The translations under genes were made by a program, and so were the position numbers. 64,000 nt of DNA, from NCBI GenBank assembly GCA_963718745.1, contig OY970370.1, forward strand, positions 248,001 through 312,000. Direction: 5' to 3'. The notes beneath the pieces are model-generated. The model was not told the DNA's origin and ran no database searches. It was given only the letters and a program-made list of their open reading frames with translations. Below are positions 146 through 56,280 of this stretch, one piece after another. How positions within the stretch are numbered: the first letter of the stretch is position 1; every line of letters starts with the position of its first letter. The DNA is from Fermentibacter sp963718745 [NCBI: Candidatus Fermentibacterota bacterium]. Lineage in GTDB: Bacteria > Fermentibacterota > Fermentibacteria > Fermentibacterales.

Positions 146-1012
146 ATGAGCACATTCACCGTAAGGATCCTGGAGAGGCGCGATCTCCTCAACTTCCTCT
201 CCGGCCATCTCCTGGGCTTCGCGCTGGACGACTTCTTCGACGGCGCATATCTCGGAGCCTTCGACGATTCCGGAGAACCCGCCGGTTTCATCTTCACCGG
301 ACACGACAGGGAGGAGGGGGAGGTCCTGATCGGCGTTCCACACGCCGTCCGGGGTCTGCCGCATGCGAGGGAACTGGAGCTGGTACTGGTGAAGGAAGCG
401 GTGCGGGCTGCTCTGGGAAGGGCGCAGACCGTTACGGCGGCGGTCTATTCGGACCAGGACCGCGAGGAGATGACCAGGCTCCAGGACATCTACAGGAGCA
501 TCGGCTTCAGGTACTCGAGGGACAGCACGATCCTCACGCGTTCGCTGGAGGATGTCGAACCTCCCGGGACCGCGCTCCGCAGCATCGGCCTGGACCGTAC
601 CGGTCCGGACCGCCTGGCCTCCATCGCGAGGGACTGCGCCGGCAGGACCGCCTGGGCGGAGATCGACTTCAACGGATACCTCTCGACCTGGAGCTCGGGA
701 GCGAGATTCGATGCCGATCTCTTCAGAGTGGTGCTCCAGGACGGAGAACCGGCTGGAGTCATGATGGCGAGACAGGACAGCCTCGACCAGAGAGAGGGCG
801 CGTTCTACTTCATAGGTGTCCTGCCCCATTTCAGGAGGCGGGGCATAGGTACCTCCATCCTCCAGACGGGCATGTCCATGCTCCGTGAGAGAGGCTGCGC
901 GAGGACGAGGCAGACGGTCCCGGCGGGGGACGGTCCGGCACTCATGCTGCTCGAGAAGGCCGGATACCAGGTTTCCGAATGGGCCAGGTACTTCCAGCTT
1001 TTCAGGAGCTGA
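146..1012 (+). CDS. GNAT-family N-acetyltransferase (two-domain type)
   Basis: This 288-residue protein is predicted to transfer an acetyl group from acetyl-CoA to an unknown amine. The C-terminal half is a GNAT fold: residues about 229-240 read FRRRGIGTSILQ, the acetyl-CoA pyrophosphate loop, and it is followed by the usual helix and an ALMLLEKAGY element. The N-terminal half is as long as a second GNAT domain but has no clear loop, so it is probably a degenerate copy. The ATG is preceded by GGGAG about 8 bp upstream. The 3' end overlaps the convergent gene at 1002 by 11 bp. The substrate cannot be told from the sequence. Confidence 0.75.
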   Translation: MSTFTVRILERRDLLNFLSGHLLGFALDDFFDGAYLGAFDDSGEPAGFIFTGHDREEGEVLIGVPHAVRGLPHARELELVLVKEAVRAALGRAQTVTAAVYSDQDREEMTRLQDIYRSIGFRYSRDSTILTRSLEDVEPPGTALRSIGLDRTGPDRLASIARDCAGRTAWAEIDFNGYLSTWSSGARFDADLFRVVLQDGEPAGVMMARQDSLDQREGAFYFIGVLPHFRRRGIGTSILQTGMSMLRERGCARTRQTVPAGDGPALMLLEKAGYQVSEWARYFQLFRS

Positions 1013-2003
1013 GGTCTGCGGCCCCAGAGCCCCCGTCCCGGCCGAGAACAGCCGCGACCGAGGCGAATACGGCATCGGGCCGTTCCACAACTGTCACTCC
1101 AGCGGACTCCAGGGCATTCCTCTTGGCCTCCCAGGTCTCTGCCTCGCTTCGGATCATGGCTCCCGCATGGCTCTGGGTGACCCCCGCGGACGTGAACTTC
1201 CCGCCGAGGAAGATCACGACCGGCTTTGATATCCTGCCCTCCGACACGGCAGCGGCCAGTTCGTTCTCCTGGGTGGTCCCGGTTTCACCGTAGCCGGCCA
1301 CGACCTTCGTCCGTGAGTCCTTCTCGAAGGCAAGCGCCGCTTCCAGCATGGTCGTGCCCGGGACGGGATCGCCCCCGACGCAGACAACCGCCGAGATCCC
1401 CGGACCGGTCTCTCCCCAGAGTTCTCCGTATCCGCCCCCCGGGAGCGGACCCGGGAGACGGGGTCTGCAGTGGAACGCACCCAGCAGCTGCGAGAGTCCT
1501 CCGGACCGGGAGATGATGCCGACGCATCCCGGGAGGTAGTTCTTCCTGGCCCAGGAGGCGTTGCCCCCGATAAGGCCGAAAAGGTAGCCTGCCGTGTCCA
1601 GCATCCCCACTGTGTTGGGTCCGATGATCCTGAAGCCTTCGACCACAGACTGTTCGCGCATCAGGGCTGCGTCGTGGGTTGCCACTCCGTCGGCCGTGTG
1701 AACCATGAAGCGTATGCCGCATGCGGCGGCGTCCCGGGTGGAGGCGAGAACCGCTCCTGCGGGTACGAAGAAGACCGCCGAGTTGATTCCGGGAAAGGCC
1801 GAGACGGCCTCGGAACAGGAGTCGAACACGGGGATCCCGTCCACCTCCTGACCACCCTTGCCGGGGGTCACTCCCGCGAGCACTGTCGTGCCGAACCCTG
1901 TCATCACGCGTGTAGTGCTCTGCCCCTGCTTGCCCGTGATGCCGAAGACGACCACCCTGGGCTCTGCAATGCCGGCGAGATGCTCGAGTATGCCTGCCAT
2001 CAT
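1002..2003 (-). CDS. Succinyl-CoA synthetase-type alpha subunit (NDP-forming acyl-CoA synthetase)
   Basis: This 333-residue SucD-family subunit would bind CoA and carry the phosphohistidine that links acyl-CoA cleavage to NTP formation. The N-terminal CoA-binding Rossmann segment reads GITGKQGQS (residues 21-29). The ligase half ends with SHAGAM, whose His279 is the expected phosphohistidine. It is about 40 residues longer than SucD, with a Pro/Gly-rich stretch after SRSGGLSQLLG. The start is the first of two ATGs at 2003; that ATG overlaps the stop of the beta gene as ATGA, which implies translational coupling. The frame stays open upstream to 2192, but that part lies inside the beta gene. 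Succinate is not assured as substrate: acetyl- or other acyl-CoA synthetases (ADP-forming) share the fold. Confidence 0.8.
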   Translation of the reverse strand: MMAGILEHLAGIAEPRVVVFGITGKQGQSTTRVMTGFGTTVLAGVTPGKGGQEVDGIPVFDSCSEAVSAFPGINSAVFFVPAGAVLASTRDAAACGIRFMVHTADGVATHDAALMREQSVVEGFRIIGPNTVGMLDTAGYLFGLIGGNASWARKNYLPGCVGIISRSGGLSQLLGAFHCRPRLPGPLPGGGYGELWGETGPGISAVVCVGGDPVPGTTMLEAALAFEKDSRTKVVAGYGETGTTQENELAAAVSEGRISKPVVIFLGGKFTSAGVTQSHAGAMIRSEAETWEAKRNALESAGVTVVERPDAVFASVAAVLGRDGGSGAADLSS

Positions 2004-3472
2004 TCCACCTCCGGCATGTCCAGTTGGATGAAGAGACCCTCCGCCCCCTCCAGGAGGCAGGCGGTCTCGCACATCAGGCAGCCCGTGCACCGGGTGCCCT
2101 CCCTGGGGGTCGGTCCGGCGGCATCTCCGCCCCACTGAAGGAATCCGACGGGGCAGGCCGAGAGGCAGGGTCGTGATGCACATCCTGCACATCTGCCGGC
2201 ATCGATGTGGAAGACACCCGGCGGCACCTGGACCGTGAAGGACGGGGGCACGCCCGGTCCCCGGACCTCCCGCGGAACACCGGTCCCGGCCTCCTCCAGG
2301 AAACTCTTCATCCTGTCCACCATGGCGTTGGGGAATACCTCGGACGGGAACGTCTCCACCCTCGCCCCGAGGGTGGGCGCAATCCTCGCGAAGAGCTCCC
2401 TGGCCCTGCCTTCATCCGTCCCGCCGAACCTGACCATGGTCGGGACGACGTCCGGACTCTCACGCATGGCCTTCCAGATCGCGGCGGCTATGTGGAGCTG
2501 GCTCTGGAAAGCCATTCCAGATCCGGTGAACAGCAGCAGGTCTGCGTCCTTCTGGGAAAGGACCGCACGGAGGAACCGATAGCTCTTGAATGCGGACAGA
2601 CCGCCTGAGGTGTCGGATTCGTTGAGGGCGAAGATGTCGTCCCTGCCGCCGACGGCCATCTCCCAGAGCATCTTGCCTCCACCTCCGCAGAGGTTCGTAG
2701 CCACGCGCACCGCGCCGGTCGCCGGCAGACTCCTGTTCTGCCTGAAGAAGGCCGTCCCTGCGGGATCGGATCTGTTTATGGCGTCGACGAGTTTCTCGAT
2801 CGGCGTGGAGTCCGACTGACCCGACGATCCGGTTCCGAAGAGATCCTCCTCGCCGCGCCTCACGGCTCTTTCCTCATACTCCGCCCTGCAGTCGACGACC
2901 AGGACTCTGCCGTCGGTGAGCACGGCCACGGGATTGGCCTCGATCACGAGCAGCCTGTACTCGATGAACACCCTGGCCATCCCGGCCAGGATCCCGGCGA
3001 CGGCCCGGTTCCAGGGAGAATCGGGCAGGGCCGCTTCCAGTTCTTCATGCGTCGGAGGAGTGGATAGCGGGAACCTTACGTCGACGAGAGAACCGGACCG
3101 GGACTCTATGCCGGAACCTCCGCTCCTGCTGAAGAGGATCCTGCCGCCGGGGAGCACGGAGGACGAACCACCGTCGAATATCACGGCGGCATAGAGTTCC
3201 TCTGCGATGTCCACGCCCTCCGTGGCCAGCACGCCTTCGCAGCGCTCCGCTCCGAGGAGCCGGGCGAGCTCGCCGGGCAGGGCACCGGGAGAGTCGATCC
3301 TTTTGACCAGCCCTGCGTTCTTGCGGCTCGTCGCACCCGGGATCTGCGCCTTCAGGAAGAGCGGACAGGTCATTCCGGCTACGGGTTCCGACGTCAGGAG
3401 GATTCCCGGGACGAGAGGAACCCCCGCGGCTTCGAGAAGCTTCCTTGTCCGGTATTCAGGGAGTGCAGGCAT
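2000..3472 (-). CDS. Succinyl-CoA synthetase-type beta subunit fused to a C-terminal 2x[4Fe-4S] ferredoxin domain
   Basis: This is a 490-residue ATP-grasp subunit of an NDP-forming acyl-CoA synthetase. Residues 1 to about 210 match the SucC ATP-grasp fold (EYRTRKLLEAAGVPL near the start, LVIEANPVAVL for the metal site). The middle, with TNLCGGGGKMLWEM, is the CoA-ligase half. Unlike SucC, it continues into a ferredoxin module with Cys428, 431, 436 and 440 (CX2CX4CX3CP) and Cys462, 465, 468 and 472 (CX2CX2CX3C), enough for two iron-sulfur clusters. The ATG at 3472 has GGAG 6-7 bp upstream and lies inside the 3' end of the radical SAM gene (17 bp overlap). The fusion suggests electron transfer linked to, or regulating, acyl-CoA metabolism; that is inference. 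Confidence 0.8.
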   Translation of the reverse strand: MPALPEYRTRKLLEAAGVPLVPGILLTSEPVAGMTCPLFLKAQIPGATSRKNAGLVKRIDSPGALPGELARLLGAERCEGVLATEGVDIAEELYAAVIFDGGSSSVLPGGRILFSRSGGSGIESRSGSLVDVRFPLSTPPTHEELEAALPDSPWNRAVAGILAGMARVFIEYRLLVIEANPVAVLTDGRVLVVDCRAEYEERAVRRGEEDLFGTGSSGQSDSTPIEKLVDAINRSDPAGTAFFRQNRSLPATGAVRVATNLCGGGGKMLWEMAVGGRDDIFALNESDTSGGLSAFKSYRFLRAVLSQKDADLLLFTGSGMAFQSQLHIAAAIWKAMRESPDVVPTMVRFGGTDEGRARELFARIAPTLGARVETFPSEVFPNAMVDRMKSFLEEAGTGVPREVRGPGVPPSFTVQVPPGVFHIDAGRCAGCASRPCLSACPVGFLQWGGDAAGPTPREGTRCTGCLMCETACLLEGAEGLFIQLDMPEVE

Positions 3473-4592
3473 GATCGTCTCCAAGGGCGGTGCCGGTGTC
3501 GGAACCGGGCCCGCCGTTCGTTCCTGTTCCTTTTCCTGGAGGAACCTCCCGCCGCCTTGCTGCGGCATCCTTCATCATCCTGTCGGTTCGCCTGACCGAT
3601 CTGAACCAGTCCAGGGCGACGGGCAGGGATAGTCCGTAGAGATAGTTGTACTCCGTGTAGCACCCGGCCACGCAGGCCTGGCAGGGCAGATCCCCGAGTG
3701 CTTTGAAAGCTTCCTCGAAGCCCATTTCGATGGCGCTGGGCGAATCCTTCCCCAGACCGATGAGGAGCGAGCAGGGGTAAAGGCGTCCGTCCGCGTCGAT
3801 GTTGCAGTACATCCTGGCGGCTCTGCAGGACACGCCGTGGAAACGGCCGGGCAGTGTCGTCCTGCCGTAGTCGGGCCATCTCATGAGGCTTTCGAGATAC
3901 CTCGCCGAATTCGCGATGGGAGCTCCCTCCCGCTTTCGTGCGAGCAGATGGCGGAAGGCTTCGGCGTACTCCGCGCCGGAGGGCATCATCCCAGTGGGGT
4001 TCCTGCCGAGCTTGTCGTTGTGGTGCAGGGTCTGGAAAGTAGTCATGAAGCCTTCGCGCCCGGCCGTCTCGAGGATTTCGTCGAGATGGCCGAGGTTGTT
4101 CCTGGTGAGGACGGTTATCGACCAGAGCCTGACCCTGCCCGCAGCGGTCTCGATCGCTGCCATGACCTTTGCGTGGCTTCCAGGCTGGCGGTTGGCATCG
4201 TGCGCCTTTTCAGGGCCGTCATAGGCGAGTACGAGGTGGTCTATCGCGCCCAGGATCTCCGGGCGCGAAGGGAGCAGGTAGCCGTTGGAATCGAGGCTCA
4301 CATAGATGCCCATCTTGCGGGCATGGGAGCAGATCTCGACAATGTCGCGCCGGGCGAGGGGTTCGCCGCCCCAAACGCCGATCCGCCTCGTGCCGGCCGC
4401 AGCCATCTGCGAGAGCAGGTCCAGCCACCTTTCGGTGGACAGGTCGGGCCTGCCCTGCTCGGGGATCTGGCAATACGCACACCTGCTCGGGCATCTGTCG
4501 GTGACCGAGATCATCACGTTCACCGGCCTCGATCTGCCCAGGAGACCCCCGAGCGCGTCCAGGCCCATCATCAACTGACCGGCGGTCTTCAT
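3456..4592 (-). CDS. Radical SAM protein with SPASM-like C-terminal cysteines
   Basis: This is a 378-residue radical SAM enzyme. The cluster motif CPSRCAYC gives Cys34, Cys38 and Cys41 (CX3CX2C), followed by the SAM-binding WGGEPL at about residues 74-79. The C-terminal third has more cysteines (CRAARMYCNIDADGRLYPC, then CQACVAGC), the pattern of a SPASM or twitch domain holding auxiliary clusters, as in peptide-modifying and MoaA/PqqE-like enzymes. The ATG at 4592 follows GGGAGG with 6 bp spacing; the frame is open further upstream but without a better start. It is the first gene of an operon with the acyl-CoA synthetase beta and alpha genes. No small precursor-peptide gene is visible beside it, so its substrate is unknown. 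Confidence 0.8.
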   Translation of the reverse strand: MKTAGQLMMGLDALGGLLGRSRPVNVMISVTDRCPSRCAYCQIPEQGRPDLSTERWLDLLSQMAAAGTRRIGVWGGEPLARRDIVEICSHARKMGIYVSLDSNGYLLPSRPEILGAIDHLVLAYDGPEKAHDANRQPGSHAKVMAAIETAAGRVRLWSITVLTRNNLGHLDEILETAGREGFMTTFQTLHHNDKLGRNPTGMMPSGAEYAEAFRHLLARKREGAPIANSARYLESLMRWPDYGRTTLPGRFHGVSCRAARMYCNIDADGRLYPCSLLIGLGKDSPSAIEMGFEEAFKALGDLPCQACVAGCYTEYNYLYGLSLPVALDWFRSVRRTDRMMKDAAARRREVPPGKGTGTNGGPGSDTGTALGDDHACTP

Positions 4593-4887: not shown

Positions 4888-4915
4888 TTGACACACGCCC
4901 CGCATTTGATAGAAT
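4888..4915 (+). promoter_or_regulatory. Predicted sigma70-type promoter of the secreted repeat protein
   Basis: TTGACA at 4888-4893 and TAGAAT at 4910-4915 are separated by 16 bp and lie 35 bp before the ATG at 4951. The same -10 hexamer TAGAAT occurs in front of both tRNA genes in this window. Confidence 0.65.
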
Positions 4916-4950
4916 CTCGGCGGGTGTCACACTATCCCTGGAGGAGGGAA

Positions 4951-5586
4951 ATGAAAAAAGCCTTGTTTGCACTGGCAGCTCTTTCTCTTGTGGCTTCCGC
5001 AGGAACGATCGAGATCACCAATGACACTGGCAGCTGGGACATCTACTACGCCTATATCTCCCCGTCCACTTCGGACGAGTGGGGCGACGACTGGCTGGGC
5101 AGCGAGATAATGAGCGTCGGCGAGGTCTGGGAGTTCCCGGTCACCAACGGAACCTGGGACATCAAGCTCGTTGACGAGGATGGCGACGAGTACATCCTGT
5201 ACAACGTCCAGGTCGCGGGCACCTGGCGCTGGAGCGTCACCCTGGACGACCTCGGCGAGAACTACTACTCCTCCGCGGTCATCGACGACAAGGGCGGAGT
5301 AGTCACCGCCGGCGGCGGCAGCGCACCCGTAACCGTCTACAACGACCTCGGCAGCTGGACCATCTACTACATCTACTGCAGCCCGTCCGCCAGCTCCGAC
5401 TGGGGCTCCGACTGGCTCGGCAGCGGCGTGGTCGCCCCGGGCGAGTCGTTCACGTTCTACGTCTCCGGCGCCGACTACTACGACATCTACTGCCAGGACG
5501 AGGACGGCGACACCTACTCCCTGTACGAGGTCTGGATCGACAGCAACGGTTTCTACTGGTCCGTGGACCTCGGCGATATCGACTGA
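4951..5586 (+). CDS. Secreted protein with two copies of an ITNDTGSWDIYY-type domain
   Basis: This 211-residue protein starts with a signal peptide (MKKALFALAALSLVASAG). It then has two repeats of about 90 residues. Each opens with a hydrophobic strand ending in N-D-x-G-S-W-x-I-Y-Y, continues with S-P-S-x-S-x-x-W-G-x-D-W-L-G-S, and ends with a D-E-D-G-D-x-Y motif. The two copies are separated by a Gly/Ala-rich linker near residue 113. I know this pattern only as an uncharacterised domain of bacterial secreted proteins; the acidic DEDGD loops could bind calcium. GGAGGAGGG at 4940-4948 is a strong ribosome site, with a promoter at 4888 and a terminator at 5608. The gene therefore looks like a single-gene, well-expressed unit. 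The lipoprotein at 23948 starts its mature part with the same IEITND motif. Confidence 0.75.
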   Translation: MKKALFALAALSLVASAGTIEITNDTGSWDIYYAYISPSTSDEWGDDWLGSEIMSVGEVWEFPVTNGTWDIKLVDEDGDEYILYNVQVAGTWRWSVTLDDLGENYYSSAVIDDKGGVVTAGGGSAPVTVYNDLGSWTIYYIYCSPSASSDWGSDWLGSGVVAPGESFTFYVSGADYYDIYCQDEDGDTYSLYEVWIDSNGFYWSVDLGDID

Positions 5587-24341: not shown

Positions 24342-27300
24342 ATGCACCCGGATGCCATACTCGGAATCGACCTCGGTTCTGTCAGCGTCAAGCTCGCAGT
24401 CGTAGAGAACGGCTCGATAGCACGAACCGTCTACAGGCGTCACCTCGGCAGACCGTACGAGACTCTCGCGCTTCTCCTCCCCGGGCTGGAAGGCTGGCAG
24501 ACGATGCCGGTCTGCCTGACGGGTTCGGCGGCGCGCGGCCCGGCCGCCGCCTCCGGGAGGAGGCCCGTGAACGAGGTCGTGGCCCTGGCTGCCGCGGTCT
24601 CCTCGCTCCATCCCGAACTGGGCTCGGTGATAGAGATGGGCGGCCAGGACTCCAAGCTCCTCCTGTTCAGGCACGAGGGCAGAACCAGCGTTTTCGACGA
24701 CTTCTCGATGAACTCCGTCTGCGCTGCCGGAACGGGTTCCTTCCTGGACCAGCAGGCCGCCCGCCTGGGCATGGACGCAGAGGAGCTCGGGCGCCTCGCC
24801 CTCAGATGCTCGCGTCCGCCCAGGGTTGCCGGACGATGCAGCGTCTTCGCCAAGTCCGACATGATCCACCTGCAGCAGATCGGCACTCCTCCCGAGGACA
24901 TCGTGGCAGGACTCTGCCTGGCCGTGGCCAGGAACTTCAAGAGCATAATCGCGGGCGGTAAGGAGTTCCGGCCGCCCGTCGGCTTCGTGGGCGGAGTCGC
25001 AGCCAATGCCGGCATGGTGAGGGCCTTCGGAGAGGTTCTTTCCGGTTTCAGCGGGGGAGTGACCGTCCCCCTCCATTTCGCTCTCCTGACTGCGGCCGGT
25101 GCGGCCATGTGCGCGGAACCGGACCAGCTGTTCATCCCCGGAGACGGCTTCCTCGCGAGGCTCGGGGAACTGAACAGCCGATTCGAAGCCGGGAGGAGCC
25201 ATCCGCCGCTCATCTCCCGCCGCGGTTCGAAGCCGGTGAACAGCCTCGGCAGGCCGGAAACCGGCGGTGGATTCCACATAGGCATCGACGTCGGATCCAT
25301 AAGCACGAATCTCGCAGCTCTCGACGAGTCCGGCGGCCTGGTGGCCCGGGAGTACCTCATGACTGCGGGCAGGCCGCTCGAAGCCGTCAAGACAGGGCTC
25401 GCGCTGATCCGGGACTCGATCGGACCGGATGCGACCGTTCTCTCCGCAGGCGTGACCGGATCGGGCCGGTACATGATAGGCGACTTCACCGGGGCAGACA
25501 CTGTGGTCAACGAGATCACCGCACAGGCCATGGCGGCCGTCGCCGCATGTCCGGACGTCGACACCGTCTTCGAGATCGGCGGCCAGGATTCCAAGTACAT
25601 CCGCATCGAAGGCGGCAGGGTGATCGACTTCGAGATGAACAAGGTCTGCGCCGCTGGAACCGGATCATTTCTCGAGGAACAGGCCGAGAAGCTGGGCCTC
25701 GGGATCCGCGAGTTCGGTCCGGTGGCGCTGGAGGCTCCGGCGCCCTCCGAGCTGGGCGAGAGGTGCACCGTCTTCATGGAGAGCGACGTGGTCTCCCATC
25801 AGGCCGGAGGCGCGTCGGTGGAGGACATAGTCGGAGGCCTCTGCTATTCCATCGCGCAGAACTACCTGCACAGGGTGGTGGGCGACAGGAAGCCGGGCGC
25901 CAGGATTCTCTTCCAGGGCGGAACCGCTCACAACGACGGGGTCGTGGCCGCCTTCAACGCCATCCTGGGCCGTGAAGTCGTCATTCCTCCCCACCATGAC
26001 GTCACGGGGGCGATAGGTGCAGCCCTGATCGCCCGGGACCGATCGGGCGGCAGACCCTCCTCCTTCAGGGGTTTCGGGCTGGCGGACGCGGCCTACACCC
26101 AGACGAGCTTCACGTGCGAGGGCTGTCCCAACCGTTGCGAGATCCATTCAGTCCACTTCGAGGACGACCGGAAGCTCTTCTACGGAGGCAGGTGCGAGAA
26201 GTACGAGGTTGACCGGAAATCAGGCCCCGCGAAGGGCCGGAATCTCTTTCCGGATCGCGAGAGGCTGCTCCTCGGAGACTATTCGGAGCCTTCTTCCGAT
26301 GCCGATCCGGCCCGGCTCATAGGCATCCCCAGAGCGCTGTGGTTCTGGGAGTTCTTCCCGTTCTTCAGGTCTTTCTTCGAGACCCTCGGCTTCGGTGTGG
26401 TCCTGTCCTCGCCGTCGACGGGGAAGACCGTCCACAGAGGTGTCGAGAACGTGGCTGCGGAGACCTGCTTCCCCGTGAAGATAGCCCACGGGCATGTGCT
26501 CGATCTCGTAGAGCGTGGAATCGACAGGATATTCATACCTTCGATCCTCAGGGCCTTCCCGCACGAGGAGTTCGAGGAGGCGCAGAACTGCCCCTACGTC
26601 TCCGGATCCCCCTACGTGATAGAGTCCTCGCTCGATCTCGCCGGCAGAGGAGTGGAGGTGCTCTCGCCCGCACTCGACTTCACGGGGCAGATCTCCGACT
26701 GGAGGGCCGAACTCGGATCGCTCGCCGAGTCTCTCGGTTGTCCCCCGGAGGAGGCCGCCCGCGCAGTGGAGCGCGCGCTCGAGGCGCAGGAGAGGTTCGA
26801 GAGGGAAACATCCGAGGCTGGCAGAGAAGCTCTTGCCGGGATCCCGGAGACCGATACCATCCTTGCCGTGGTCAGCAGACCCTACAACGGCTGCGACCCG
26901 GCGGTGAGCTCGGATCTTCCGGTCAAGCTCTCCAGGATGGGTGTCCACGTGATGCCAGCCGAGATGCTGGATCTGCCGATGCGTGATGCATCGGAGAGAT
27001 TTCCCGGGATGTACTGGCATTACGGCCAGAAGATAATCGCATCCGCGCTGGCGATCAGGCGGGACCCCCGCATACATGCGGTCTATCTGACCAACTTCGG
27101 TTGCGGCCCCGATTCCTTCATACTCCACTCCTTCGCTTCCGCTATGGAGGGCACGCCCTTCCTGACTCTCGAGGCCGACGAGCATTCGGCGGATGCAGGG
27201 ATGATAACGCGCTGCGAGGCCTTCCTCGATTCGCTCTCCACATCCCCGGAGCCTGGCGCTCCCGCTGCTTCGCGGCACGGAGCCGCACCGTCGAGGGTAT

Positions 27301-28592
27301 CGGCGGAGGGAAGGACGATCTGGGTCCCGAGGCTCGGCCCGGGTACGCGTCTCGTTGCGGCCGCAGCCAGGCGCAGGGGGTTGGATGCACGGGAGATGCC
27401 GGAGACCGACGCCGAGTCGGTAGCGCTGGGAAGGACCGTGACCTCGGGCAAGGAGTGCTATCCCGCCATAATAACTTCGGGCAACATGCTCAAGGTGCTT
27501 GCGACGAACGATCCCGACAAGGTCGCCTTCTTCATGGGCACCGCCTCCGGGCCGTGCCGTTTCGGCCAGTACTGCGCATTCCACAGGATACTCCTGGACA
27601 GGTCCGGATACTCTTCCGTCCCGATCATCACATCGTCGTCGAAGGATTCGTACACTTCCATCGACGGCCTCGATTCCCCGTCATTCCAGGTCGACCTCCT
27701 CAGAGGGACCGTATGCGCGGACATCATGAAGGCGGCCTACAGGAGGACGAGCCCCTACGAGACCAGGAAGGGTGATGCTCTCAGGGCGTACAACACGGGG
27801 ACGGCCCTGCTCGAGAAGGCGATGGAGACGGGTGACGGCCTGAAGGAGGCCTTGTCCCGGGCTGCATCCATGTTCGAGGGAGTGACCGTTTCCGGAGTCG
27901 ACAGACCCAGGGTCCTCGTCTTCGGAGAGATCTATGTGCGGAGCGATCCGTATGCCAATTCCTGGACCGAGGACAGGATCGAGGCCCTCGGGGGAGAGGT
28001 TCTCCCGACATGGGTGCTGGAGTGGTTCGAATTCGTGAATCACACCTTCCTCAGGAGGTCGATGAGGAAGCGGAGGTTCAGGGACATCATGACCGCGACG
28101 GCCAAGGGTATGCTGATAAGGCATGTGAGAGGCGAGATGGAACGCCCCTTCAGAAGGCTGCTTGCCGGAAGGCACCATCCCTCCTCCGCCGAGGTGCTCT
28201 CGGCCGCCAGGCCCTACATGAAGGAGAACATCGGGGGAGAGGCCATCCTCTGCATCGGAGCCCCGATCGCGCTGTCGCGAAGGGGTGCGATAGACGGAGC
28301 GGTCAACGTCCTTCCGTTCACATGCCTGCCGGGTACGATCGTGACCGCTGTTTCCAAGCGGCTCAGGAAGGATCTGCCGGACCTGCCGTGGCTGAACCTC
28401 GCCTTCGACGGCCAGGAGGACACCGACAACGACGCCAGGCTCGAGGCATTCATGTACCAGGTGAGGGGAGGCTCCGACGCAGGGGGCCACAGTAGATCCG
28501 AGCCCCGGGGATTGCCGGCACGCGCCGGTTCGGGGGAGAAGGCGGCCATCCGGACAGCATACGGGAAAGGACGGGAGCCCGATGGAACATGA
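24342..28592 (+). CDS. Giant acyl-CoA dehydratase activase (two BadF/HgdC ASKHA domains plus DUF2229/HgdB-like region)
   Basis: This 1416-residue protein joins two ATPase domains of the 2-hydroxyglutaryl-CoA dehydratase activator family to a long C-terminal part. Domain 1 starts GIDLGSVSVKLAVVE (about residue 8) and has GGQDSK and MNSVCAAGTGSF. Domain 2 starts GIDVGSISTNLAAL (about 314) and has GGQDSKYIRI and MNKVCAAGTGSF. Both keep the Cys of CAAGTG and the later Cys (GRCSVF, ERCTVF) that bind the bridging [4Fe-4S] cluster in HgdC. A Cys group CEGCPNRC (about 593) opens the DUF2229-type region and is followed by HgdB-like sequence with further cysteines. This architecture is known in many anaerobes, but the substrate is not. 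Its stop overlaps the aminopeptidase gene. Confidence 0.88.
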   Translation: MHPDAILGIDLGSVSVKLAVVENGSIARTVYRRHLGRPYETLALLLPGLEGWQTMPVCLTGSAARGPAAASGRRPVNEVVALAAAVSSLHPELGSVIEMGGQDSKLLLFRHEGRTSVFDDFSMNSVCAAGTGSFLDQQAARLGMDAEELGRLALRCSRPPRVAGRCSVFAKSDMIHLQQIGTPPEDIVAGLCLAVARNFKSIIAGGKEFRPPVGFVGGVAANAGMVRAFGEVLSGFSGGVTVPLHFALLTAAGAAMCAEPDQLFIPGDGFLARLGELNSRFEAGRSHPPLISRRGSKPVNSLGRPETGGGFHIGIDVGSISTNLAALDESGGLVAREYLMTAGRPLEAVKTGLALIRDSIGPDATVLSAGVTGSGRYMIGDFTGADTVVNEITAQAMAAVAACPDVDTVFEIGGQDSKYIRIEGGRVIDFEMNKVCAAGTGSFLEEQAEKLGLGIREFGPVALEAPAPSELGERCTVFMESDVVSHQAGGASVEDIVGGLCYSIAQNYLHRVVGDRKPGARILFQGGTAHNDGVVAAFNAILGREVVIPPHHDVTGAIGAALIARDRSGGRPSSFRGFGLADAAYTQTSFTCEGCPNRCEIHSVHFEDDRKLFYGGRCEKYEVDRKSGPAKGRNLFPDRERLLLGDYSEPSSDADPARLIGIPRALWFWEFFPFFRSFFETLGFGVVLSSPSTGKTVHRGVENVAAETCFPVKIAHGHVLDLVERGIDRIFIPSILRAFPHEEFEEAQNCPYVSGSPYVIESSLDLAGRGVEVLSPALDFTGQISDWRAELGSLAESLGCPPEEAARAVERALEAQERFERETSEAGREALAGIPETDTILAVVSRPYNGCDPAVSSDLPVKLSRMGVHVMPAEMLDLPMRDASERFPGMYWHYGQKIIASALAIRRDPRIHAVYLTNFGCGPDSFILHSFASAMEGTPFLTLEADEHSADAGMITRCEAFLDSLSTSPEPGAPAASRHGAAPSRVSAEGRTIWVPRLGPGTRLVAAAARRRGLDAREMPETDAESVALGRTVTSGKECYPAIITSGNMLKVLATNDPDKVAFFMGTASGPCRFGQYCAFHRILLDRSGYSSVPIITSSSKDSYTSIDGLDSPSFQVDLLRGTVCADIMKAAYRRTSPYETRKGDALRAYNTGTALLEKAMETGDGLKEALSRAASMFEGVTVSGVDRPRVLVFGEIYVRSDPYANSWTEDRIEALGGEVLPTWVLEWFEFVNHTFLRRSMRKRRFRDIMTATAKGMLIRHVRGEMERPFRRLLAGRHHPSSAEVLSAARPYMKENIGGEAILCIGAPIALSRRGAIDGAVNVLPFTCLPGTIVTAVSKRLRKDLPDLPWLNLAFDGQEDTDNDARLEAFMYQVRGGSDAGGHSRSEPRGLPARAGSGEKAAIRTAYGKGREPDGT

Positions 28593-33986: not shown

Positions 33987-34007
33987 CATCCATCCCGCAT
34001 CAGCCGA

Positions 34008-34150
34008 TCTTGCCTTCCGTGCGAACGCAGGAAGGCGGTGCAAATCCGCCACGGTGGCGCCACTGTAACCGGGGACTCCTTCCGAATGCCACTGCCCTCC
34101 GGGGCGGGAAGGCCGGCAGGGGGATGATCCGGAAGTCAGGATACTGCGCC
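34008..34150 (+). promoter_or_regulatory. Cobalamin riboswitch
   Basis: The core elements are all present in order: GGTGCAAATCCGCC (34037-34050), CGCCACTGTAACCGGGGA (34058-34075), GCCACTG (34088-34094), then GGGAAGG (34106-34112) and the B12 box GGAAGTCAGGATAC (34131-34144). It precedes a BtuB-like receptor gene, the classic target. TTGACA at 33983-33988 could be the -35 of its promoter, but the -10 at the right distance is poor. Confidence 0.93.
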
Positions 34151-34200
34151 GCGTGAAGCGAGGCTTGTCTCTCCGCTCCAGGGAGATCCTCGCGTCCGCC

Positions 34201-34228: not shown

Positions 34229-36199
34229 ATGCGGTTGCTGCTCTTTTCGATAGTCCTCGCATCGCTTGCGATTTCGTCGCCCCGACTGGATTCGTCCGTC
34301 AGGGTCGTCGACACTTCCGGTCTCGCCGTCGCCGGTGCCGTGATGTCGGATACCTCGTCAACCTTCATCAGCGACGGACAGGGACTATTCCATCCCGCTC
34401 CGCCCGCTGGACTCGCGGTCACCATCCGTGCGATGGGCTACTCATCGTGGACCGGGCCTGTCCCCGCGGACGGGACGGTCATCCTGACCCCGGATGCCAT
34501 ACCCAGCGGAGTGACGATCCCTGTCGGGGCGAGACGGGTGACGGCCACCTCGGCCGGGATCCAGACAGTCGAGATAGGTGGCGGGGACCTTCCCGGCACG
34601 GGGCTCGCGGGCGCCCACTCGCTCGAGATCCTATCCCCCGGGCTGTCCGTTCGCGAGTACGGCGGGGCGGTCTCGGTGCTCTCCTTCTCCATAAGGGGAT
34701 CGGATCCTTCACAGATCGGCTGGAGCATCGACGGACACCGGGTGAGGAGCGCCATGGACGGATCGCCTGCGATAGCTCTCCTCGACGGGCTCTTCGGTTC
34801 GATCCGCCTCGCGAGGGGAGGGGGCTCGGCCTACAGCGAGGGCGGTCTCGCCGGCACGGTCGAGCTGCAGACTCCTGACGCCGGCTCGCCCCCCGTCCTC
34901 TTCCTCGGCATGGACTCCCGGAAAGGCTCCTGGTTCGGCGGATCCAGTACTATCGGCAATCGCCTGAGGCTGGCCTGCTCTTTCTCCCGCCCCGTCGGAC
35001 CGGGGGGAGGTCGCGGGCGGACGGCCGGGGTGCTCGCTTCCTTCGAGAACGAGGGGTTCGCATCGGGAACGCTCGTCACGAGCGCCGCAGGCGATGCCGA
35101 GAGCCCGGACTGGGCGGTCTCCCAGGACGCTTCGATCAGCCGTTCCTCCATCGATTCATGGTTTTCCTGTGCCCTGGGAGGCTTCAGCCTGGATGGCGGC
35201 GGCCACCTCGGCGGTACGGGCTACTCGGCCGACTTCCCGGACACGGTACGCGACCGGCACGCGGAAGGCTCCGTCGAGTCAGGCGCCGGCTTCCGCATCG
35301 AAGGGACCTCCTGGGAGCTCGATCTTTCTTCGGACGCGAGATGGGAGTGGGTCTCGGGAACTGCTCTCGGGACCAGGAGGAGGATGCTCGCCTCGGTCGG
35401 AGCAGCAGCCCGCTCCTCGGCCCTGGGTATGCTCTCGACTGCGGCGATGAGGGTGGAGAGCGATCCGTCCGGCGGGACCCGCCTGGGGGCGAGAGCCGGC
35501 GCGGGGATGCCCGTGACGGGGGAGATCGTGATGGAGGTCTCTGTCTCGAGCAGCTTCAGGAGACCCACCTTCAACGAGCTTTACTGGCCGAGGGACCCCT
35601 TCGCGGAGGGCAATCCGGATCTCGTGCCGGAAACGTCCACGGAGCTGGACATGACCGCACGGTACTCCTCCGGGGGGACCGAGGCATCCGTATCCGTCTT
35701 CTCGGCATCCTGCGGCGACCTCATCGTATGGACTCCCTCGGCCGACGGCCTGTGGAGGCCGGGGAACGTCTCCCGGGCCCTCCGCAGGGGAATAGAGCTG
35801 TCAGGTCTCGGTTCATACGGAATGCTCTCTCTCAGAGGCTCTATCACGCTCCAGGAAGTGAAGGACGTGACCGGGGGCTCGACGAGCGAGGGCATGCTGC
35901 TTCCATACAGACCCTCCATGACCGCCGGCTGCCTCATCGGAGCGGACCTGGGTCATGCCACCGCGGGCGTCTCGGCGTCGTACACCGGAAGGCGCTACAT
36001 CAATGCGGCCAATACCATCGCCCTTCCCGCCTACGCGCTCTTCGGAGCCTCCATGGAGATGCCGGTGCGGTGGATCGAAGGCCTGTCGCTGGAGCTGTCG
36101 GGCGTTAATCTGCTCGATCTGGAGTACGAGGAGACCAACGGGTATCCGGGGCGCGGAGCCACCGTGATGCTCGAACTCAGATGGGAGGGGAACAGGTGA
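34229..36199 (+). CDS. TonB-dependent cobalamin receptor (BtuB-like)
   Basis: This 656-residue outer-membrane receptor has a signal peptide (MRLLLFSIVLASLAISS), a carboxypeptidase-regulatory-like N-terminal domain (SSVRVVDTSGLAVAGAVMSD) and a plug. The plug contains LSVREYGGAVSVLSFSIRGS, IDGHRVRS and the GGGSAYSEGGLAGTVEL end. A beta-barrel follows with SSFRRPTFNELYWP and LVPETSTELDMTARYS, and it closes with ELSGVNLLDLEYEETNGYPG. Regulation by the cobalamin riboswitch makes B12 or another corrinoid the likely cargo. TonB-ExbBD and BtuFCD genes are not in the window. The stop overlaps the next gene as GTGA. Confidence 0.88.
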   Translation: MRLLLFSIVLASLAISSPRLDSSVRVVDTSGLAVAGAVMSDTSSTFISDGQGLFHPAPPAGLAVTIRAMGYSSWTGPVPADGTVILTPDAIPSGVTIPVGARRVTATSAGIQTVEIGGGDLPGTGLAGAHSLEILSPGLSVREYGGAVSVLSFSIRGSDPSQIGWSIDGHRVRSAMDGSPAIALLDGLFGSIRLARGGGSAYSEGGLAGTVELQTPDAGSPPVLFLGMDSRKGSWFGGSSTIGNRLRLACSFSRPVGPGGGRGRTAGVLASFENEGFASGTLVTSAAGDAESPDWAVSQDASISRSSIDSWFSCALGGFSLDGGGHLGGTGYSADFPDTVRDRHAEGSVESGAGFRIEGTSWELDLSSDARWEWVSGTALGTRRRMLASVGAAARSSALGMLSTAAMRVESDPSGGTRLGARAGAGMPVTGEIVMEVSVSSSFRRPTFNELYWPRDPFAEGNPDLVPETSTELDMTARYSSGGTEASVSVFSASCGDLIVWTPSADGLWRPGNVSRALRRGIELSGLGSYGMLSLRGSITLQEVKDVTGGSTSEGMLLPYRPSMTAGCLIGADLGHATAGVSASYTGRRYINAANTIALPAYALFGASMEMPVRWIEGLSLELSGVNLLDLEYEETNGYPGRGATVMLELRWEGNR

Positions 36200-54577: not shown

Positions 54578-54657
54578 CATGAAGAGTAGCCGATCCGGTT
54601 GCATAGTCGACCATTGGGGTCTGAGAACAGGCGGCTTCACCGCCGGGGAGGGAAATG

Positions 54658-56280
54658 ATGAAAATTGTCCTTTCATCGATGCTGCTGTTCGCGGCAGCGG
54701 CGTGGAGTTCGGACTCTGCGGCCGACAATCCCGACGGAGTGGTGTTCGGGTCCAGCTACGGCTCCATCCCCGCAGAAGACCTGGCAGATCCGAACGACCC
54801 GACCTACGTGCCGGGCCAGGTATCACCCCTCGAGGGCATCCTGCCTCCGCTGAGGGATGAGGGTTCCGTCGCGCTCCCTGGGGACGGGTATGACTGGGAT
54901 ATGGATCGCTTGATCTACGGCGGAGTGGTCGGCTCCAGCCAGGACTTCGACGTCGACCCGACCACAGGCTACCTCTACGCCGCACTCGACACGTACCATA
55001 CGGCGGGTGACAGCATCAGGGTATACCGCTCGACCGACGGCGGCCTGACATGGGCCAGCTGGGGCGTGTGCACCAACACCGACGGCGGGCTCCTCAATGC
55101 CAAGATCCGTGTAGTGCAGACCGGCGGCTTCACCTGGGTCTGCGTGCTCTGCCTCTATGACGAACCGGACGGACTCGACGAACTCTACCTCCGCAGGTGG
55201 CATGTAGACGGCTCCGCCGGGGCATGGGACCTCGTCGACAACGATGTTGTCTTTGCCGACATGGACGGCGACATAGGATCATCCGGCTACCTCTACGTGA
55301 CCTACGTCCCCGACGGCACCGGGGAGGACATCTGGGCGGCCAGGAACGCGCTCACCGGTTCCGGCTGGGTCAACAACGTCTCCCTCTTCGTCGATCCCGG
55401 CACCACCCCTTACCCCGCGATCTCTGCCGGAGCCGGCGGCGACGTCGCTGTGACATTCATAGACACCAGGGTCACGACGAACGACGAGGTGCGGATCAAG
55501 CGCTCCACCGACTCCGCCTCCACATGGCTGGGCTCCGCCCAGGTCAGCAACAACTCGAGCGGACTCGAGCTCGAGAACTGCGACATCGCCCTCAGCCGCG
55601 GCACATCCGGCTGGATCTCGGTCGACTACTCCAACGGAAACCTCGGTTACTACTACACTACCGACACAGGCAGCACCTGGACCTATGGAAGCGTTTTCGC
55701 CGGAGCCGGTGACGAGTTCATGTCCTCTCTGCGCGGAACCAAGGGGACCGGAAGCGTAACCCTCGCCTACAACACGGACCCGGGGGATTTCGTGTACTTC
55801 ACCTGGGCAAGCTCCAGCAATCCCAGTAGCTTCAGCACTCCCGCCCAGATAAACGACCAGGCCGCCACAGACCTCTGGGGGCCCACCGCCGGCTGGCTGT
55901 CCACCGGCACATACTCTGCCGTGGCATACACCAGAGTTTCCGATTATTCCCTCTACTTCGACGATTTCGGCAACGTCGGCATCGAGGACGGCCCTGCCGC
56001 CGGCTTCTCCGGCCTGGGCATCGCTCCCAACCCGTTCATGGATCTTGCCACGATCAGCTTCAGTCTCGAATCCGGCGCGCCCGTCCATGTCGACATCTTC
56101 GACATGAGCGGCCGCCTGGTGCACACTCTCGCCGACGGAGCCTCCATGGCCTCAGGAAGCCACGAACTCACCTGGGACGGCAGTGACGCATCCGGCGCAC
56201 CCGTTCCCGGTGGCGTGTACATCTGCCGCATGACCACGCCCGGCTCCTCCGAGAGCCTCAGGATTGCTCTGGTCAGGTAG
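54658..56280 (+). CDS. Secreted BNR/sialidase-like propeller protein with FlgD-like sorting domain (copy 1)
   Basis: This 540-residue exported protein has a signal peptide (KIVLSSMLLFAAAAWS), a propeller with Asp-box turns (YRSTDGGLTWASW, KRSTDSASTWLGSA, YTTDTGSTWTYG), and a C-terminal sorting domain (IAPNPFMDLATISFSL, then FDMSGRLVHTLADG and PVPGGVYICRM). No sialidase catalytic residues can be assigned, so it may bind rather than cut glycans. The second of two ATGs (54658) has better spacing to GGGGAGG than the first. It is followed by a near-identical paralog at 56478. Confidence 0.78.
   Translation: MKIVLSSMLLFAAAAWSSDSAADNPDGVVFGSSYGSIPAEDLADPNDPTYVPGQVSPLEGILPPLRDEGSVALPGDGYDWDMDRLIYGGVVGSSQDFDVDPTTGYLYAALDTYHTAGDSIRVYRSTDGGLTWASWGVCTNTDGGLLNAKIRVVQTGGFTWVCVLCLYDEPDGLDELYLRRWHVDGSAGAWDLVDNDVVFADMDGDIGSSGYLYVTYVPDGTGEDIWAARNALTGSGWVNNVSLFVDPGTTPYPAISAGAGGDVAVTFIDTRVTTNDEVRIKRSTDSASTWLGSAQVSNNSSGLELENCDIALSRGTSGWISVDYSNGNLGYYYTTDTGSTWTYGSVFAGAGDEFMSSLRGTKGTGSVTLAYNTDPGDFVYFTWASSSNPSSFSTPAQINDQAATDLWGPTAGWLSTGTYSAVAYTRVSDYSLYFDDFGNVGIEDGPAAGFSGLGIAPNPFMDLATISFSLESGAPVHVDIFDMSGRLVHTLADGASMASGSHELTWDGSDASGAPVPGGVYICRMTTPGSSESLRIALVR

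What the first reader, a model, noticed from the sequence alone, without database searches (positions are those of the whole stretch)
1002..4592. Acyl-CoA synthetase (NDP-forming) with a ferredoxin domain, in an operon with a radical SAM enzyme
Seen: the beta subunit has eight cysteines in two ferredoxin-like groups (Cys428-440 and 462-472) after a complete ATP-grasp/ligase part. It overlaps a SPASM-type radical SAM gene and the alpha gene. SucC and acetyl-CoA synthetase beta subunits normally have no iron-sulfur domain. Inference: substrate-level phosphorylation could be coupled to or gated by electron transfer, or the radical SAM protein could modify the synthetase or its substrate. A linked operon of this kind is not one I recognise.
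Basis: partly seen in the sequence, partly recalled or inferred. Interest (0 to 1): 0.68.

Follow-up and report, generated by a model that had tools for sequence, protein, structure and literature searches.

The report
Citryl-CoA-synthetase-like enzyme with ferredoxin domain
Fermentibacteria carry an enzyme pair related to those that split or make citrate with ATP, one half of which ends in an iron-sulfur (ferredoxin) domain and lies, in every Fermentibacteria copy examined, behind a radical SAM gene; it is probably a citrate-handling enzyme of a new build rather than a machine that moves electrons.

Summary
Beta (2000-3472, minus strand) has an intact ATP-grasp/CoA-ligase part and eight ferredoxin-type cysteines, between a radical SAM gene (3456-4592) and alpha (1002-2003). 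The radical SAM gene is directly upstream in 27 of 27 Fermentibacteria loci. Only C440, C462, C465 and C468 are invariant (30 of 30 rows, window included): by the textbook fold, the ligands of one [4Fe-4S] cluster; all eight persist in 3 of 30. In a Myxococcota and a Phycisphaerae contig the pair follows, without that radical SAM gene, a citryl-CoA-lyase-like gene, two aconitase-family enzymes and an isocitrate-dehydrogenase-family gene; a distant Myxococcota relative fuses alpha to a citryl-CoA lyase. Fermentibacterota mostly lack the citrate synthase family (found in 7 of 42) and lack CitF and CitG (0 of 42), but have a CitE-family gene, a CitD-CitE-like fusion in the six examined, that co-occurs with the pair (29 of 30 versus 4 of 12). 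Best reading: a citryl-CoA-synthetase-type ligase with a non-catalytic, probably regulatory or structural Fe-S domain. Substrate, Fe-S content and radical SAM role are untested. New variant of a known kind.

The parts
3456..4592 (-). Radical SAM gene (378 aa), three AdoMet-cluster Cys (C34, C38, C41) and six further invariant Cys in the C-terminal part (C256, C263, C274, C304, C307, C311)
   Evidence: Pfam Radical_SAM E 1.6e-18; Cys invariant in 25 of 25 and 28 of 28 rows; none of the 25 NCBIfam models shown (of 48 that match) reaches its cut-off
2000..3472 (-). Beta subunit (490 aa): SucC/citryl-CoA-synthetase-type ATP-grasp and CoA-ligase part plus C-terminal ferredoxin domain
   Evidence: fold model pLDDT 84 (pTM 0.55, so domain placement is unsure), residues 2-396 match citryl-CoA synthetase 6hxq_B (Z 26.1), ATP-citrate lyase 6hxj_A (25.5) and SCS 3ufx_G (25.3), a tie
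2003..2260 (-). Ferredoxin domain of beta, residues about 405-490
   Evidence: Fer4_6 E 2.8e-5; profile match to solved 4Fe-4S proteins at 420-475
2069..2155 (-). Codons of the invariant one-cluster set C440, C462, C465, C468
   Evidence: 30 of 30 rows that reach this part, window included
2057..2191 (-). Codons of the second-cluster set C428, C431, C436, C472, kept together only in the window, L001 and L025 (and in distant G553)
   Evidence: 4, 3, 16 and 3 of 30; G553
1002..2003 (-). Alpha subunit (333 aa): CoA_binding plus Ligase_CoA
   Evidence: Pfam CoA_binding E 3e-17, Ligase_CoA E 1.4e-7; model pLDDT 87, pTM 0.88
1167..1169 (-). Codon of H279 (numbering from ATG 2003), aligned with the phosphohistidine loop (SHAGA here, GHAGA in SCS)
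   Evidence: alignment; H279 invariant in 16 of 16; that this His is phosphorylated in SCS is recalled
1404..1481 (-). About 18-residue family-specific insertion after SRSGGLSQLL, containing invariant F-H-C-R
   Evidence: absent from SCS alpha chains (gap); F-H-C-R in all 30 rows and all 16

Best explanation
Beta and alpha form an NDP-forming acyl-CoA ligase of the SCS / citryl-CoA-synthetase / ATP-citrate-lyase superfamily that most likely interconverts citrate (or a close tricarboxylate) + CoA + ATP with citryl-CoA + ADP + Pi through a phosphohistidine. The C-C bond step is done by a separate lyase: a citrate-synthase-fold citryl-CoA lyase next door in Myxococcota and Phycisphaerae, and probably the unlinked CitD-CitE-like fusion in Fermentibacteria. 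The pair would then cleave citrate with ATP, or run backwards and make citrate while gaining ATP, in bacteria that mostly lack citrate synthase. The ferredoxin domain is old in the family, is expected to bind one [4Fe-4S] cluster in most members (two in the window's lineage) and is not part of the ligase chemistry; it most likely serves stability, partner docking or redox/oxygen control. The radical SAM gene (and DUF362 gene) is a Fermentibacteria-specific add-on of unknown task. Shown: sequence, conservation, gene order, co-occurrence. Inferred: substrate, direction, lyase partner, cluster binding and its role.
For: Gene context in L018 (with L058) and L021 (with L060): IDH-family, HD, aconitase-family twice, citryl-CoA-lyase-like, beta-Fd, alpha, with KorAB-like genes in L060; the same genes lie in L026's genome on two contigs that break inside the lyase gene (L062, L026). 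L018's lyase-like protein has H. thermophilus citryl-CoA lyase 6hxp as best solved match (E 9e-34 against 9e-18 for the best citrate synthase). Distant relative G553 has the same C-terminal domain with eight Cys, its beta passes Pfam Citrate_bind (30.7 bits, cut-off 26.8) and its alpha is fused to a lyase domain that passes two NCBIfam citryl-CoA lyase subfamily cut-offs (249.7 of 245; 243.1 of 212). Alpha has SRSGGLS, C. limicola ATP-citrate lyase KSGGLS, four solved SCS chains SRSGT. Fermentibacterota: citrate synthase family in 7 of 42 genomes, aconitase family 39 of 42, CitE family 33 of 42, a CitD-CitE-like fusion in the three proteins scanned and six aligned, CitF 0 of 42, CitG 0 of 42; pair and CitE family co-occur in 29 of 30 against 4 of 12, p 3e-5, while acetate kinase as control does not follow the pair (p 0.7). 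Cluster ligands.
Against: No assay. The window's beta does not match Pfam Citrate_bind at E 0.01, and by sequence both subunits score nearest SCS; structural ranks are tied. L018's lyase-like protein is below the NCBIfam citryl-CoA lyase cut-offs (best 180.6 of 245). The cluster's aconitase- and IDH-family proteins fit homoaconitase/homoisocitrate models as well as or better than aconitase/isocitrate ones, one aconitase passing the 'homoaconitate hydratase family' subfamily cut-off, so homocitrate is possible. The CitE-type proteins are below the CitE equivalog cut-off (236-253 of 443) and unlinked to the operon. Co-occurrence may partly reflect MAG incompleteness and kinship: genomes without the pair are smaller (p 0.026), and among genomes of 2.3 Mb or more the table is 25/1/3/3, p 0.015. 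4 of 30 genomes with the pair also have citrate synthase. One search, a single-protein search, cannot show absence of citrate synthase: it found nothing in G015, where the family search found one.
Confidence: 0.5

Rival explanations
1. It is a succinyl-CoA (or other dicarboxylate) synthetase for substrate-level phosphorylation in fermentation, with an odd C-terminal Fe-S domain; the citrate genes near the Myxococcota and Phycisphaerae copies are only general TCA neighbours.
For: Both subunits score nearest SCS chains by sequence (beta 3ufx_B E 1.6e-23, alpha 2yv2_A E 4.6e-63); SCS belongs to the same TCA segment as KOR and IDH (general knowledge).
Against: Below the NCBIfam SCS cut-offs (beta 50 of 370, alpha 187 of 336 bits); SGG instead of SGT and a conserved insertion in alpha; adjacency or fusion with citryl-CoA lyases.
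Confidence: 0.25
2. Redox-gated or electron-coupled enzyme: the cluster passes electrons to or from ferredoxin, KOR or the radical SAM protein and switches the ligase on or off.
For: One cluster's ligand set is invariant (30 of 30 rows); a KorAB-like 2-oxoacid:ferredoxin oxidoreductase lies in the same gene cluster in L060; Fermentibacteria are suggested to be strict anaerobes (passage in PMC5763382).
Against: The ligase reaction has no redox step (general knowledge of the family); planctomycete relatives keep the domain without three of the four invariant ligands; the full second-cluster set, which a two-cluster relay would need, is missing in 27 of 30 rows.
Confidence: 0.2
3. The radical SAM enzyme matures the synthetase or makes its substrate.
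For: Directly upstream in 27 of 27 Fermentibacteria loci, from 23 bases inside beta to 46 bases before it.
Against: Beta-alpha pairs with the same invariant residues occur in Myxococcota, Phycisphaerae and Riflebacteria with no such gene beside them (L018, L021, L024; L026 held only 228 bases upstream) and no close homolog in those four genomes (0 at E 1e-15 in three, one 31% match in the fourth).
Confidence: 0.12
4. Homocitrate, methylcitrate or another C6-C7 tricarboxylate is the true substrate.
For: In L018 the 422-aa aconitase-family protein passes the 'homoaconitate hydratase family' subfamily cut-off (515 of 386); L060's IDH-family protein scores best with homoisocitrate dehydrogenase models (259 of 540); a saccharopine-dehydrogenase-like gene lies upstream of G553's pair.
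Against: No homoaconitase or homoisocitrate dehydrogenase equivalog cut-off is met; an NAD-isocitrate dehydrogenase is the best solved match and homoisocitrate dehydrogenase the second; in Fermentibacterota the co-occurring lyase family is CitE-like.
Confidence: 0.2

Closest known systems
Citryl-CoA synthetase (CcsAB) plus citryl-CoA lyase (Ccl) of Hydrogenobacter thermophilus (6hxq, 6hxp)
   Same: Fold of beta over residues 2-396; two-subunit ligase with a separate citrate-synthase-fold lyase in L018 and L021
ATP-citrate lyase (AclBA; Chlorobium 6hxj, human ACLY)
   Same: SGGLS loop in alpha; distant family member G553 has the alpha-lyase fusion and the Citrate_bind domain
   Different: Window alpha is not fused to a lyase; Citrate_bind not matched in the window's beta; extra ferredoxin domain
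Succinyl-CoA synthetase (SucCD)
   Same: Domain content, phosphohistidine loop, best sequence scores
   Different: Far below the SCS equivalog cut-offs; insertion in alpha, ferredoxin domain in beta
Citrate lyase (CitDEF)
   Same: Fermentibacteria hold a CitD-CitE-like fusion (three scanned, six aligned)
   Different: CitF and CitG not found in 42 of 42 genomes, so it cannot be the usual enzyme
NDP-forming acetyl-CoA synthetase (ACD)
   Same: Same superfamily; weak alpha match (62 of 567 bits); distant relatives G553 and L045 do pass Pfam ATP-grasp_5 (62.6 and 65.2 of 27.6 bits), though ATP-grasp_2 scores them higher (175.9 and 123.5)
   Different: No ATP-grasp_5 match in the window's beta

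Membership tests
Citryl-CoA synthetase / ATP-citrate lyase | SCS-type beta fold | tested here: met
   beta Z 26.1 to 6hxq_B, but tied with SCS 25.3, so it does not tell the two apart
Citryl-CoA synthetase / ATP-citrate lyase | Citrate-binding domain signature (Pfam Citrate_bind) in beta | tested here: not met
   no match at E 0.01 in the window's beta; passes the cut-off only in distant relative G553, below it in L045
Citryl-CoA synthetase / ATP-citrate lyase | citryl-CoA lyase adjacent or fused | tested here: not met
   none in the window; met in L018, L021, L054 and L055
Citryl-CoA synthetase / ATP-citrate lyase | activity with citrate | not testable with these tools
   needs an assay
Succinyl-CoA synthetase | NCBIfam SucC and SucD equivalog scores | tested here: not met
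   50 of 370 and 187 of 336 bits
Succinyl-CoA synthetase | phosphohistidine loop in alpha | tested here: met
   SHAGA aligned with GHAGA, H279 invariant in 16 of 16
Ferredoxin domain, 2[4Fe-4S] type | eight ligand cysteines in two motifs | tested here: met
   present in the window; but all eight in only 3 of 30 rows, one-cluster set in 30 of 30
Ferredoxin domain, 2[4Fe-4S] type | bound clusters | not testable with these tools
   needs purified protein
NDP-forming acetyl-CoA synthetase (ACD) | ATP-grasp_5 beta domain | tested here: not met
   not among Pfam matches of the window's beta; it is matched in distant G553 and L045
Radical SAM with SPASM domain | CxxxCxxC AdoMet motif | tested here: met
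   C34, C38, C41 in 25 of 25 rows; Pfam Radical_SAM
Radical SAM with SPASM domain | SPASM domain | tested here: inconclusive
   six invariant C-terminal Cys, no Pfam SPASM match at E 0.01
Citrate lyase (CitDEF) | CitF transferase and CitG prosthetic-group synthase | tested here: not met
   0 of 42 and 0 of 42 Fermentibacterota genomes; the same searches ring in 3 and 5 of 14 control genomes

The most novel reading that the evidence does not exclude
Fermentibacteria run an ATP-coupled, reversible citrate synthase/lyase of hybrid build: an Fe-S-carrying citryl-CoA synthetase takes the place of CitF, a CitD-CitE fusion freed from its prosthetic group does the C-C bond chemistry on the CoA thioester, and the [4Fe-4S] cluster sets the direction or activity by redox state, with the radical SAM and DUF362 genes as a lineage-specific control or maturation unit.
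Probability: 0.2. Interest if true: 0.75.

Novelty: new variant of a known kind. Interest (0 to 1): 0.5.

Why it matters
Succinyl-CoA synthetase, citryl-CoA synthetase and ATP-citrate lyase are textbook enzymes not known (as far as my limited searches go) to carry an iron-sulfur domain. A family in which one cluster's ligands are invariant would add Fe-S or redox control to an ATP-coupled step of central carbon metabolism. It also offers a testable answer to how a phylum that mostly lacks the citrate synthase family yet keeps the aconitase family handles citrate.

Tried and rejected
Tried and dropped: (1) acetate-forming ADP-linked synthetase as the role in Fermentibacteria: the acetate kinase family is matched in 42 of 42 genomes, though in 12 of them only by short or distant matches, so the gap it would fill is small; and the ACD beta domain is not matched in the window. 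(2) Eight conserved cysteines: four are conserved. (3) The radical SAM gene as a general partner: not found outside Fermentibacteria. (4) Citrate-synthase replacement by strict complementarity: pair and citrate synthase are not anti-correlated (4 of 30 against 3 of 12, p 0.39). (5) Plasmid relatives: only two malate-CoA ligase hits at 26%. (6) L032 was an ordinary SucCD pair, beta 22% identical. (7) The CitD serine that bears the prosthetic group could not be placed safely: five of six CitD-CitE sequences read KSD where L077 reads KAD (which serine it is, is recalled). (8) Ranking SCS, citryl-CoA synthetase and ATP-citrate lyase by fold: tied. (9) A tree of beta (35 rows, L002 and L031 left out as truncated) puts the Myxococcota, Riflebacteria and Phycisphaerae copies among Fermentibacteria, but the outgroup branch is very long and the root unsure. 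(10) 'The lyase-like gene is the only citrate-synthase-like gene of Phycisphaerae G012': dropped, because the same call missed the citrate synthase of G015.

Rows dropped before counts: L032 left out of all family counts; L002 and L031 lack the ferredoxin part (30 of 32 rows counted); the radical SAM N-terminal Cys count omits truncated L003, L007 and L022 (25 of 28 rows); the DUF362 count omits L003, L007, L022 and L028, whose contigs end too early (24 of 28).
Full report
What is there. The window comes from a relative of Candidatus Fermentibacter: its beta protein is 70-73% identical to Fermentibacteria contigs L001 and L002. No whole genome is held for it. On the minus strand run a radical SAM gene (4592-3456), beta (3472-2000) and alpha (2003-1002), each overlapping the next. 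Beta is a SucC-type ATP-grasp/CoA-ligase protein with a C-terminal ferredoxin domain; alpha is SucD-type. The predicted fold of beta (mean pLDDT 84, pTM 0.55, 17 sequences) matches citryl-CoA synthetase, ATP-citrate lyase and SCS beta chains over residues 2-396 with Z 25-26, a tie; the last ~95 residues hold the ferredoxin domain, matched by profile to solved 4Fe-4S proteins.

Conservation. One scan of the genome collection (84,980 species by the tool's description) with the window's beta gave 32 loci: 27 Fermentibacteria, one Myxococcota, two Phycisphaerae, one Riflebacteria and one ordinary SucC (L032). The scan needs an exact match to one of six eight-residue peptides, so distant members are missed. 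With a profile, 30 of 42 Fermentibacterota genomes have it, one match each except G837, where it is split between two contigs. In a sample of Planctomycetota 4 of 392 at E 1e-30 (one of them L021's genome, three distant), in the Riflebacteria phylum 1 of 39 (L024's own), in a sample of Myxococcota 2 of 377 at E 1e-28 (one of them L018's, one distant). Searches scored only three or four candidates a genome in most genomes, so their counts are lower bounds.

Cysteines. C440, C462, C465 and C468 are invariant in 30 of 30 rows that reach the domain (window included); C428, C431, C436 and C472 are Cys in 4, 3, 16 and 3 of 30. In the classic 2[4Fe-4S] fold (recalled) the first set is all the ligands of one cluster and the second all those of the other. 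So one cluster's set is kept by all and the other's only by the window, L001 and L025. The distant Myxococcota protein G553 has all eight, which suggests that the two-cluster form is ancestral. Three distant planctomycete proteins keep the domain by alignment (L045 against G553: 31% identity, E 9e-9) but have lost C440, C462 and C465 as well as C431 and C436; they keep C428, C468 and C472. Other invariant Cys: C195 and C262 of beta (32 of 32), C180 and C209 of alpha in numbering (30 of 30).

Ligase part. Alpha keeps the phosphohistidine loop (SHAGA) and has an insertion of about 18 residues with invariant F-H-C-R after SRSGGLSQLL. Four solved SCS chains read SRSGT there; Chlorobium ATP-citrate lyase reads KSGGLS. 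Between seven Fermentibacteria rows and the four rows of other phyla, alpha is 61-72% and beta 46-60% identical, so alpha is under strong constraint and the substrate is probably the same in both groups.

Gene context, Fermentibacteria. The radical SAM gene ends between 23 bases inside and 46 bases before beta in 27 of 27 loci. A DUF362 gene precedes it in 20 of 24 loci with enough sequence, the window included; the window, L001, L002 and L029 lack it (one of the 20 was scanned, PF04015 E 3e-31). The four other loci have no such radical SAM gene: none beside L018, L021 and L024, none close in the four genomes.

Gene context, other phyla. In L018/L058 (Myxococcota) and L021/L060 (Phycisphaerae) the pair ends a same-strand cluster: IDH-family, HD-domain, aconitase-family (601 and 607 aa), aconitase-family large and small, citryl-CoA-lyase-like, beta, alpha. 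In the second Phycisphaerae genome the same genes lie on two contigs, one ending inside the lyase gene (L062) and one starting 228 bases before beta (L026), so adjacency there is likely but not seen. In L060 KorAB-like genes (2-oxoacid:acceptor oxidoreductase models, 388 of 411 and 183 of 402 bits) precede the cluster. L018's lyase-like protein has citryl-CoA lyase 6hxp as best solved match but stays below the NCBIfam citryl-CoA lyase cut-offs. In G553 (L054) alpha is fused to a lyase domain that passes two such cut-offs, beta passes Pfam Citrate_bind, a saccharopine-dehydrogenase-like gene lies upstream and an HD gene downstream. In planctomycete L055 the order is beta, alpha, citryl-CoA lyase (263 of 212 bits), GNAT-like, HD. 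In the Riflebacteria locus the pair stands alone as far as the ORFs read. Citryl-CoA synthetase plus lyase is the known two-step citrate cleavage of one form of the reductive TCA cycle (passage in PMC9802188).

Fermentibacteria metabolism. Citrate synthase family 7 of 42 genomes, one of them a short match; aconitase family 39 of 42; HpcH/CitE family 33 of 42. The CitE-like protein is about 400 aa with a CitD/MdcD-type carrier domain at its N-terminus (PF06857 25.9-45.8 bits, cut-off 25.1; TIGR01588 236-253 bits, cut-off 443; three proteins scanned; six aligned). CitF and CitG were found in 0 of 42. Pair and CitE family occur together in 29 of 30 genomes with the pair and in 4 of 12 without (p 3e-5). 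Controls: acetate kinase (long matches) against the pair p 0.7; citrate synthase p 0.39; genomes without the pair are smaller (p 0.026), and with genomes of at least 2.3 Mb the association is 25/1/3/3, p 0.015. So part of it may be incompleteness or kinship.

Reading. The family is best placed with the citryl-CoA-forming ligases. In Fermentibacteria the missing citrate-synthase-fold lyase would be replaced by the CitD-CitE-like protein; without CitG its carrier domain cannot get the usual prosthetic group by the known route, so it would act on the CoA thioester. Such a reaction can run both ways: a 1987 paper, seen only as a title in the reference list of PMC12137691, reports acetate oxidation with ATP synthesis involving ATP-citrate lyase in Desulfobacter postgatei. 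In fermenters that mostly lack citrate synthase, making citrate for glutamate while gaining ATP is attractive; the opposite, citrate breakdown, is equally open.

The Fe-S domain. The ligase chemistry needs no electrons. Loss of one cluster's set in most members, and of three of the four remaining ligands in planctomycetes, says the domain is not a through-going wire. A single, strictly kept cluster in anaerobes fits a structural, docking or redox/oxygen-sensing role. That last step is inference.

Literature. Searches for a ferredoxin domain with succinyl-CoA synthetase, acyl-CoA synthetase or ATP-citrate lyase (2 and 1 papers), for citryl-CoA synthetase with citryl-CoA lyase (25 of 39 listed), for two of citryl-CoA synthetase, 4Fe-4S, CitE and radical SAM (10 of 718 listed, a loose query), and for lyase with homoaconitase and saccharopine dehydrogenase (1 paper) showed no description of this fusion or operon in the listings; I read passages of four papers only. 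The main F. daniensis genome paper is not held, so absence from print is not established.

Noticed in passing
L018:436-1011, L060:4700-5275 (-), L062:5011-5622 (-), L054:5025-5570, L055:5657-6241 (-): A small HD-domain protein recurs in the citrate-type gene clusters with both close and distant members of the ligase family (L018, L054 and L055 scanned as PF01966; the others likened by eye); its role is unknown.
   Followed up: partly
L074:1168-2379, L075:190-1392, L076:789-1991, L077:8599-9792, L078:7333-8538, L080:9312-10520: CitD-CitE-like fusion in Fermentibacteria without CitF or CitG (0 of 42 each), in several contigs beside small proteins with paired 4Fe-4S motifs and a DsbD/UreH-like membrane protein (my reading of the sequence).
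   Followed up: partly
L054:3337-5034: Alpha subunit fused to a citryl-CoA lyase domain next to a ferredoxin-tailed beta: an ATP-citrate-lyase layout with a ferredoxin domain, in a Myxococcota genome.
   Followed up: partly
L030:7491-8459: The alpha gene of this Aegiribacteria contig has an in-frame stop at residue 292 of 322; real or an assembly error is unknown.
   Followed up: no
window 4888-5586 (+): Small protein with two repeats (NDTGSW..YY.Y.SPS.S..WG.DWLG), divergent from the operon; a family of this look is present in 15 loci around the operon (the window's copy likened by eye).
   Followed up: no
window 33988-34167 (+): Cobalamin riboswitch (82.7 bits) upstream of the ORF at 34229-36199.
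   Followed up: no
window 54655-56280 and 56478-58118 (+): Two adjacent similar-looking proteins (541 and 546 aa, shared NDPTYVPGQVSPLEGILPP stretch), probably a tandem duplication.
   Followed up: no
window 24342-28592 (+): Long ORF (1416 aa) whose start reads like a BadF/HgdC-type CoA-dehydratase activator (recalled resemblance only).
   Followed up: no
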